This document shows positions 1 through 1,692 of a stretch of 23,161 nt of DNA, in pieces. Position 1 is the first letter of the stretch. Every line of letters starts with the position of its first letter. The translations under genes and the position numbers were made by a program. The notes under the pieces were generated by a model. The model saw nothing but the letters and a program-made list of their open reading frames with translations. It was not told the DNA's origin and did not search any database. The stretch covers positions 1 to 23,161 of IMG/VR virus record IMGVR_UViG_3300033698_000021. One strand, written 5' to 3'. The stretch is from a virus.

Positions 1-104
1 TCAGTGGGAGCCCGGTGAAGGGAATGTCAAAACACTGACTGCGCTCGGAGAGGCTTTCGCCGAGGCATCTTCGGACAGGGGTTCGACTCCCCTCGCCTCC
101 ACCA
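1..104 (+). ncRNA. ssrA: tmRNA (ssrA), 3' end only
   Basis: This is the 3' part of transfer-messenger RNA, which rescues stalled ribosomes. The tRNA-like end is clear: T-stem AGGGG (77-81), T-loop TTCGACT (82-88), T-stem CCCCT (89-93), acceptor 3' strand CGCCTCC (94-100), discriminator A101 and an encoded CCA at 102-104. Upstream, CTCGG (48-52) can pair with CCGAG (60-64), as in the last pseudoknot domain. The 5' half and the tag reading frame lie before the window. The strong terminator at 162-197 is in the right place to end this RNA. The serine integrase gene ends inside it on the other strand, so this is very probably the phage integration site. The main uncertainty is which of these bases are host and which are phage. 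Confidence 0.9.
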
Positions 105-1692
105 ACAAGGTCAAACTACTATCAAGAGGGCATGGGCTGCTTTCTTGTGTAGTTTCACCATAACCGCCAGTGGGCCGACTGGCGGTTTTTTTATTTTTCT
201 TTTCACCGGAGGTATTATTAGGAATGGTTAAGATATCCATGTCAATGCGGTCATCATATACAGTAACACGCTCCACGAATACCTGAATAGCTTTTTTCTG
301 TTCTTCAGGGGGCATTTCTTTAATATTTCTGTATCGAGCTAAAAAGGAGCGTATTTGCTCCCGGGTAAGTGAATGAGTCTGCTGCTGAAGCTTTGCTTCT
401 TCCAACCTAATACGTAGAGCAGATCTCGATGCCTCTAACTCATCCATTTTTTCTTTCATAGATTCATGGAACATGCCGGCAGCAATCGCATTGACTATAT
501 TTTTAATTTCAATTTCCACTGCCGCTAGCTGCTTTTCAATAGCAGCTATTTGTTTTGGGATTTCCGAGCTTTTAGAGGCTGCATGATTATAAATCATATC
601 AGTGGCCAAGTCGATAACATGATCAGAAAAAAGATTTTCATAAAGCGCATCAAGGACTTTCTCTTCGATAAATGCCTTATTAATAGGCTTCATATCGCAG
701 GTTTTTTTAGTTTTTCTAGTGCTGCAGCCATAATAGGCATATTCGGTTTTATTTCTTCCCATCTTTGCCCGATTTCCTACCATGGCCGCTCCACATTTAC
801 CACAGAAGATCCTGCCAGATAACAAATAAACAATCTTCGCAGAATAGGCACCAGAGGCCCTTTTATTCGCTTTCAATCTTGCTTGCACCCTTTCCCATAA
901 ATCTTTTGAAATAATAGCCGGGCATCCACCCGGAATACGGACAATTTCATCATCAGGTTTTAACCTATGGCTGTTTCTTTTTCCGTTATACATTTTGGCG
1001 GCCTTATTAAACACAAATATACCGATATATTTTTCATTTGTCAGCAGGTCATGGATGCTATTCTTACTAAAAGGATTGCCAGCTTTTGTTTTATAACCTC
1101 GGGAATTAAGAGCATCTATTATAGCCCCATAACCGTGGCCATCGGCATACATGTTAAAAATAAGGCGGACCGCTTCCGCTTCATATTCGTTTATAACATA
1201 TCTTTTATCAGGTCCGACATCGAAGCCCAAAGGAGGGATGCCGCCGGTGTGTTTGCACTGATAAGCGGTCTCTTTCATTCCCTTCATAACTTCCCGGGAA
1301 AGGTTCTTGCTGTAATATTCGGCCATACCCTCCAACACTGACTCAAGGATTATAGACTCTGGGCTATCATCAAGGTTTTCTAGAACGGAGATCAGGCGAA
1401 CTCCGCACTTTTTTAAGTGCCTTTTATAATAAGCAGAGTCAAATCGGTCACGGCTGAAGCGGTCAAGTTTATGCACGATAACAGCTTGAAAAAGGCCACT
1501 TTCCGCATCTTTCATCATTTGGAGAAATTGAGGCCGCTGGTCCGTAGTGGCCGACTTGGCCTCATCAGCATAAATACGAATAATGTTATAACCTTCCCGA
1601 GCAGCGTATTCTTTTATTGCCCGCACTTGGGCATCGATAGACTCTTCTCTTTGATTATCACTGCTATAACGGGCATAAATTACTGCATTCAA
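1..1692 (-). CDS. large serine recombinase (phage integrase)
   Basis: Site-specific integrase that inserts and, with a directionality factor, excises the phage. The 563-residue product has an N-terminal resolvase domain (about 1-140) with the catalytic serine in YARYSSD (Ser10) and arginines in KLDRFSRD (Arg78, Arg81), a recombinase domain (about 145-280), a zinc ribbon (Cys297, Cys300, Cys323, Cys332) and a coiled coil (about 380-440). The start is taken as TTG at 1692 because AAAGGAGG lies seven bases upstream. An in-frame TTG at 1710 lies ahead of that site. Family domains end near residue 495. The last ~65 residues are an odd tail: 503-511 come from the ssrA terminator and 530-563 are antisense to ssrA, giving the ARGVEPLSE-type peptide typical of reading through tRNA-like ends. 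It is the last gene of the repressor operon. Confidence 0.93.
   Translation of the reverse strand: MNAVIYARYSSDNQREESIDAQVRAIKEYAAREGYNIIRIYADEAKSATTDQRPQFLQMMKDAESGLFQAVIVHKLDRFSRDRFDSAYYKRHLKKCGVRLISVLENLDDSPESIILESVLEGMAEYYSKNLSREVMKGMKETAYQCKHTGGIPPLGFDVGPDKRYVINEYEAEAVRLIFNMYADGHGYGAIIDALNSRGYKTKAGNPFSKNSIHDLLTNEKYIGIFVFNKAAKMYNGKRNSHRLKPDDEIVRIPGGCPAIISKDLWERVQARLKANKRASGAYSAKIVYLLSGRIFCGKCGAAMVGNRAKMGRNKTEYAYYGCSTRKTKKTCDMKPINKAFIEEKVLDALYENLFSDHVIDLATDMIYNHAASKSSEIPKQIAAIEKQLAAVEIEIKNIVNAIAAGMFHESMKEKMDELEASRSALRIRLEEAKLQQQTHSLTREQIRSFLARYRNIKEMPPEEQKKAIQVFVERVTVYDDRIDMDILTIPNNTSGEKKNKKTASRPTGGYGETTQESSPCPLDSSLTLLVEARGVEPLSEDASAKASPSAVSVLTFPSPGSH
40..110. other. probable left prophage attachment junction at ssrA 3' end
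   Basis: Host ssrA sequence meets phage integrase sequence here, so the recombination crossover should lie in or just after the tRNA-like 3' end of ssrA. Phages that target tRNA or tmRNA genes usually carry sequence that rebuilds the 3' end, and the tRNA-like end is intact here. The exact core cannot be fixed without the right junction, which is outside the window. The interval given is approximate. Confidence 0.4.
162..197 (+). terminator. Rho-independent terminator downstream of ssrA
   Basis: A perfect 10-bp stem (162-171 with 178-187), six-base loop GGGCCG, then a run of T residues on the plus strand. It suits the end of the tmRNA transcript. On the opposite strand it is read as codons 503-511 of the integrase, so the same DNA is both terminator and coding sequence. 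Confidence 0.85.

What the first reader, a model, noticed from the sequence alone, without database searches (positions are those of the whole stretch)
1..210. Integrase C-terminus is written in host ssrA and its terminator
The integrase frame runs antisense through the ssrA terminator (codons 503-511) and then the tRNA-like 3' end (codons 530-563). The recombinase domains end near residue 495. If the crossover lies in the ssrA 3' end, the C-terminal tail exists only in the integrated state. In the free phage circle the gene would end with phage attP sequence instead. The protein could thus be different before and after integration, giving a possible built-in switch between insertion and excision forms. 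Serine integrase with a tmRNA target is also an uncommon pairing as far as I know.
Basis: partly seen in the sequence, partly recalled or inferred. Interest (0 to 1): 0.62.

Follow-up and report, generated by a model that had tools for sequence, protein, structure and literature searches.

The report
Prophage integrase tail borrowed from ssrA
When this virus inserts into its host's tmRNA gene the cut falls inside its own integrase gene, so the enzyme loses a conserved viral tail and gains one read backwards from the host gene; free and inserted virus thus encode two different versions of the enzyme.

Summary
The window is an attL: host ssrA 3' part (1-104) joined to a large serine integrase (about 563 aa) whose last 30 codons are ssrA read antisense. 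The same lineage also exists in the attP state. L001 (integrase 98% identical) is co-linear with the window up to the core CGCCTCCACCA (94-104), then diverges into phage DNA giving a different tail, stop and terminator. A second natural pair (L190/L191, identical integrase) and ten attP rebuilt from attL/attR show the same swap. The free-state tail looks selected as protein: it ends in [YHLF]RH[KRNQ] in seven lineages, only in the integrase frame, and is more constrained than the adjacent linker. The ssrA-derived tail looks fortuitous (all three frames occur). Two state-specific integrase forms are therefore shown at sequence level; an insertion/excision switch is only inferred. Precedents: Mx8 (integrase C-terminus altered by integration) and Dehalococcoides ssrA islands (serine recombinase overlapping attL; circular-only function suggested in 2011). 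Apparently new: direct paired states and a conserved free-state tail in a clade of serine integrases that use ssrA and many tRNA genes.

The parts
1..104 (+). 3' part of host ssrA (tmRNA); the last 11 bases (94-104, CGCCTCCACCA) are the core shared with phage attP, so the phage side restores the tmRNA 3' end
   Evidence: RF00023 match; core = point of divergence from L001; same ending followed by unrelated native DNA in an unoccupied ssrA (L245)
1..93 (-). Host-derived integrase tail, 30 codons antisense to ssrA (RGVEPLSEDASAKASPSAVSVLTFPSPGSH) and the stop codon; present only in the integrated state
   Evidence: Replaced by HRDPSNPNYQQPFKMQISIPIIGYRHR in L001; pLDDT below 50 throughout
94..106 (.). 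att core region; exact crossover inside it cannot be resolved
   Evidence: Identical in window and L001 with divergence immediately beyond; 12-16 shared bases in ten other attL/attR pairs
105..118 (.). Retained attP half-site arm (AGTTTGACCTTGT on the int strand), partner of a mirrored arm on the other side of attP
   Evidence: L004 attP has AGTTTGGACTTG ... core ... CAAGTCCAAACT; L001 imperfect version
107..215 (-). Phage-encoded linker between the integrase domains and the core, weakly constrained as protein
   Evidence: Linker non-synonymous and synonymous change about equal; predicted disordered
162..195 (+). Phage-borne intrinsic terminator that ends up behind ssrA in the lysogen and is coded inside the integrase ORF
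   Evidence: present in attP-state L001, L004, L005; analogous hairpins in L195 and L223 linkers
216..1692 (-). Large serine integrase: catalytic, recombinase, zinc ribbon and coiled-coil parts; likely TTG start at 1692

Best explanation
This is the attL junction of a prophage that carries attP inside the 3' end of its own serine integrase gene. Shown: in the attP state the gene ends with a phage-coded tail (L001: HRDPSNPNYQQPFKMQISIPIIGYRHR, stop, terminator). Recombination at the core with the ssrA 3' end removes that tail and joins the frame to antisense ssrA, which supplies a tail and stop by chance, while the phage side restores the tmRNA 3' end and brings its own terminator. Supported: the free-state tail is conserved as protein across several lineages, so the complete, selected gene is the free-state one. 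Inferred: the tail (a predicted last beta strand plus a basic YRH end) helps the integrase act when the phage is free, most simply in attP x attB integration, whereas excision from attL/attR has to be done by the ssrA-tailed form, presumably with a directionality factor. Integration would then weaken re-integration or change control of the enzyme. Anatomy about 95% sure; functional asymmetry about 45%.
For: L001 aligns with window 3271 down to 94 and no further, with no difference in the last ~130 bases before the core. L190/L191: 2334 identical bases including the whole integrase, split just after the core into phage versus ssrA. Ten attP rebuilt from attL and attR. Motif [YHLF]RH[KRNQ] in seven lineages in the Int frame only, none in the other frames of 22 P' regions, at the same offset (16 codons) in five, and kept where the core is read in another frame. 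Tail shows excess synonymous change (p 0.0001-0.04), linker does not (p > 0.3). Predicted strand 553-559 (pLDDT about 71) in the free form versus below 50 for the ssrA tail. The free-state gene is followed by its own terminator. ssrA tails differ in frame and length.
Against: No activity data for either form. YRH is absent from more distant attP-state members, so it is not universal. The motif was defined after inspection. Pairwise substitution tests are not independent and the tail is short. Few tails informed the structure model. Free-state records are linear contigs, circularity not shown. Window's own attR and host are not available.
Confidence: 0.72

Rival explanations
1. Neutral by-product: attP sits at the gene's 3' end for compactness and overlaps coding sequence because the last residues are dispensable; both forms work alike.
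For: All recognised domains end before the linker. ssrA tails vary freely. Distant members lack YRH. attP position inside or just beyond a serine integrase gene varies between related streptococcal elements (PMC5357655).
Against: The free-state tail is conserved at protein level in several lineages, which a dispensable tail would not be.
Confidence: 0.35
2. The tail conservation reflects DNA constraints of the attP arm, not protein function.
For: attP has inverted arms that cover the first codons after the core.
Against: YRH lies beyond the mirrored arms; its codons vary synonymously (R: CGT, AGG, AGA, CGG; H: CAT, CAC) and it follows the Int frame even where the core phase differs.
Confidence: 0.1
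3. L001-type contigs are not attP but integrations at some other chromosomal site, or assembly chimeras.
For: All are linear metagenome contigs.
Against: Lysis genes follow directly; mirrored arms around the core; four related contigs agree; the same kind of tail is recovered independently at attR in cultured genomes.
Confidence: 0.03

Closest known systems
Myxococcus phage Mx8 integrase (Tojo 1996, title cited in PMC4383910; review PMC6070905)
   Same: attP lies in the int coding sequence; integration gives int a new 3' end and alters the C-terminus; the review reports modified specificity and calls it a molecular switch.
   Different: Not ssrA; listed in PMC4383910 among tyrosine-type integrases; demonstrated by experiment, which is lacking here.
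Dehalococcoides ssrA islands, integrase DsiB (PMC3146451)
   Same: Serine recombinase whose ORF overlaps attL at ssrA; stop codon only in ssrA or in a neighbouring island; authors suggested full function only in the circular element.
   Different: CcrB-like recombinase with a small partner DsiA in an island; no attP-state tail or its conservation reported in the passages read.
Streptococcal IME_Spy2096_SNF2 serine integrase (PMC5357655)
   Same: Recombination site located within the serine integrase gene.
   Different: Target is a snf2 gene; state-dependent tail not discussed in the passage read.
Integration-dependent immunity of actinobacteriophages (described in PMC6109161)
   Same: Crossover inside a phage gene makes the viral and prophage proteins differ.
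   Different: The gene is the repressor and the viral form carries a degradation tag; here it is the integrase, with no such tag seen.
Moorella phage MCACPph1 integrase (OR602863.1)
   Same: 47% identical serine integrase ending in ssrA antisense (GGGGGSRTPV...).
   Different: Deposited as a phage genome; the tail is host-derived and not recognised as such.

Membership tests
Large serine integrase | Resolvase catalytic domain, recombinase domain, zinc ribbon and coiled coil | tested here: met
   PF00239, PF07508, PF13408 above cut-offs; PHROG 95; fold matches to serine integrases YokA/SPbeta, Bxb1, A118
Large serine integrase | Y-x-R-x-S-S catalytic motif | tested here: met
   Y12, R14, S16, S17 invariant in A1
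Mx8-type state-dependent integrase | attP inside int so that integration changes the C-terminus | tested here: met
Mx8-type state-dependent integrase | Changed activity or specificity of the prophage form | not testable with these tools
   Needs recombination assays
Mx8-type state-dependent integrase | Same recombinase superfamily (tyrosine) | tested here: not met
   Serine family by domain and fold
Dehalococcoides ssrA-GI (DsiB) | Serine recombinase ORF overlapping attL in ssrA | tested here: met
Dehalococcoides ssrA-GI (DsiB) | Adjacent small serine recombinase DsiA and shared integration module | tested here: not met
   ORFs next to int look like a SWIM-like and an HTH repressor protein by sequence, no second recombinase seen in the ORF list; window also carries phage terminase, portal-like and capsid-like ORFs
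Integration-dependent immunity | attP in the repressor gene; viral form ends in an ssrA-like degron | tested here: not met
   attP is in int; free-state tails end YRHR, YRHN, YRHQTK and similar

The most novel reading that the evidence does not exclude
A clade of serine integrases uses the integration event itself as a built-in state switch: a conserved C-terminal strand and basic YRH tail, present only when the phage is free, is needed for integration and is removed by integration, so the prophage makes a form restricted to excision.
Probability: 0.3. Interest if true: 0.78.

Novelty: new variant of a known kind. Interest (0 to 1): 0.55.

Why it matters
Directionality of serine integrases is generally ascribed to a separate directionality factor (own knowledge). 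An enzyme whose own C-terminus records whether it is integrated would add a self-encoded layer and could serve one-way recombination tools. Practically, database integrases taken from prophages of this clade carry a host-derived tail and lack the natural one, which matters to anyone who expresses them. The clade also shows serine integrases at tmRNA and many tRNA genes, a pairing that a 2015 survey (PMC4383910) described as not known.

Tried and rejected
Host ownership of the terminator: rejected, it is on the phage side and present in attP-state relatives. ssrA tail as a selected protein: rejected, three frames and very different lengths occur. Degradation-tag model as in integration-dependent immunity: no such end on free-state tails. 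Exact host search: a 36-base ssrA end gave nothing in viral contigs; about 400 Bacillota genomes and one order gave at best 83% over the 104 bases, so the host species and the true empty site stay unknown. First dN/dS run misread L003 because its slice began at a stop; corrected. Automatic frame for Clostridium CX1 failed and was set by hand.

Full report
What is there. The window is a whole virus record of 23161 bases. Its first 104 bases are the 3' part of a tmRNA gene (RF00023). The integrase ORF enters it from the other strand and stops at bases 3-1. Domains and fold identify a large serine integrase.

Two states of one gene. L001, a contig whose integrase is 98% identical, aligns with the window from 3271 down to 94 and no further, and the last ~130 bases before the break have no difference. 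The break is at the core GGTGGAGGCG, the complement of the tmRNA 3' end CGCCTCCACC. Past it the window reads VEA-RGVEPLSEDASAKASPSAVSVLTFPSPGSH and L001 reads VEA-HRDPSNPNYQQPFKMQISIPIIGYRHR, followed by a terminator and lysis genes (amidase, holin-like). L003, L004 and L005 have the same arrangement. Around the core L004 has mirrored arms AGTTTGGACTTG / CAAGTCCAAACT, as expected of attP. A second natural pair, L190 and L191, shares 2334 identical bases including the whole integrase and separates just after the core, one into phage and one into ssrA.

Reconstructed attP. Where both prophage ends could be found (Ruminiclostridium papyrosolvens, L007, L033, L040, L023, L180, L223, L222, L195, Clostridium CX1) attL and attR share 12-16 bases. 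Joining them gives free-state tails such as GGGEPYQSKITTDISGYRHKIYSR, GGGEPYTISLTTNISSHRHNIH, GGGGAFLYKSTIDIKDYRHRGRKIFY and GGGEPYRMKCTKSIEDYRHN. For CX1 the frame was set by hand from the integrase end, and its int-side junction is not ssrA, perhaps a tandem element, so this one is weaker.

Which tail is selected. The motif [YHLF]RH[KRNQ] occurs in seven lineages, always in the integrase frame and never in the other two frames of 22 P' regions; in five lineages it is exactly 16 codons from the core. The window's group reads the core in another frame (VEA rather than GGG) and still ends in YRH, so the motif follows the protein. Chance per sequence in shuffles is 0.0003-0.004, but the motif was chosen after looking. 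Substitution counts show excess synonymous change in the tail (p 0.0001-0.04; pairs not independent) and not in the linker (p > 0.3). ssrA- and tRNA-derived tails differ in frame and length, so they look incidental. AlphaFold2 gives the free-state tail a strand at 553-559 (block pLDDT 71) and leaves the ssrA tail below 50; few tails informed the model. Relatives without the overlap also end in strand-like segments (for example ETITIRRGDLYALF), which I take, as inference only, to be the equivalent element.

Mechanism. Shown: integration swaps the integrase C-terminus, restores the tmRNA 3' end, and puts a phage-borne terminator (162-187) behind ssrA. Similar terminator-like hairpins in the ssrA direction are coded in the integrase linkers of L005, L195 and L223. 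Inferred: since the conserved tail exists only in the free state, its selected task lies there, most simply in integration, and excision must be possible without it. Whether this amounts to a switch is open.

Known context. Mx8 changes its integrase C-terminus on integration (PMC6070905; title of Tojo 1996 in PMC4383910). McMurdie 2011 saw dsiB run into ssrA and suggested function only on the circular element (PMC3146451). A streptococcal serine integrase also contains its recombination site (PMC5357655). The idea is therefore not new. The paired states and the conserved free-state tail in this clade are what my searches did not find described; the library holds open-licence papers only, so this is a weak negative.

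Limits. The host is unidentified, the window's own attR lies outside the record, the attP-state contigs are linear, and nothing here measures activity.

Noticed in passing
L252:1501-3120 (OR602863.1, Moorella phage MCACPph1): The deposited 'integrase' CDS of this phage genome ends in antisense host ssrA (GGGGGSRTPVRRC...), so the record includes host DNA and a host-derived protein tail.
   Followed up: partly
L015, L031, L035, L037, L039, L084, L085, L086, L090, L183, L184, L188, L201, L211: Related serine integrases run antisense into various tRNA genes (Gly, Ala, Gln, Arg, Pro, Ser, Glu, Leu), a target class that a 2015 survey called unknown for serine integrases.
   Followed up: partly
L003:4600-4670: attP looks tandemly duplicated: a second core and arms 48 bases on, inserted in frame in the integrase tail.
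   Followed up: no
G022:C59:3475, 21007, 35510 (L144, L040, L145): Three cores in a row ending in an intact ssrA with its own terminator suggest tandem elements at ssrA; one neighbouring integrase reads the core in the third frame (EWWRR).
   Followed up: partly
L195:3983-4008, L223:4143-4172, L005:4519-4542: Terminator-like hairpins in the ssrA direction are coded inside the integrase linker in other lineages too, as in the window.
   Followed up: partly
L001:6445-7095: Reverse-transcriptase-like ORF (YMDD) beside the lysis genes, possibly a diversity-generating element.
   Followed up: no
L187 and L188: Two near-identical integrases, one ending at tRNA-Arg and one with a different short tail at its contig end: possibly a third natural attP/attL pair.
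   Followed up: no
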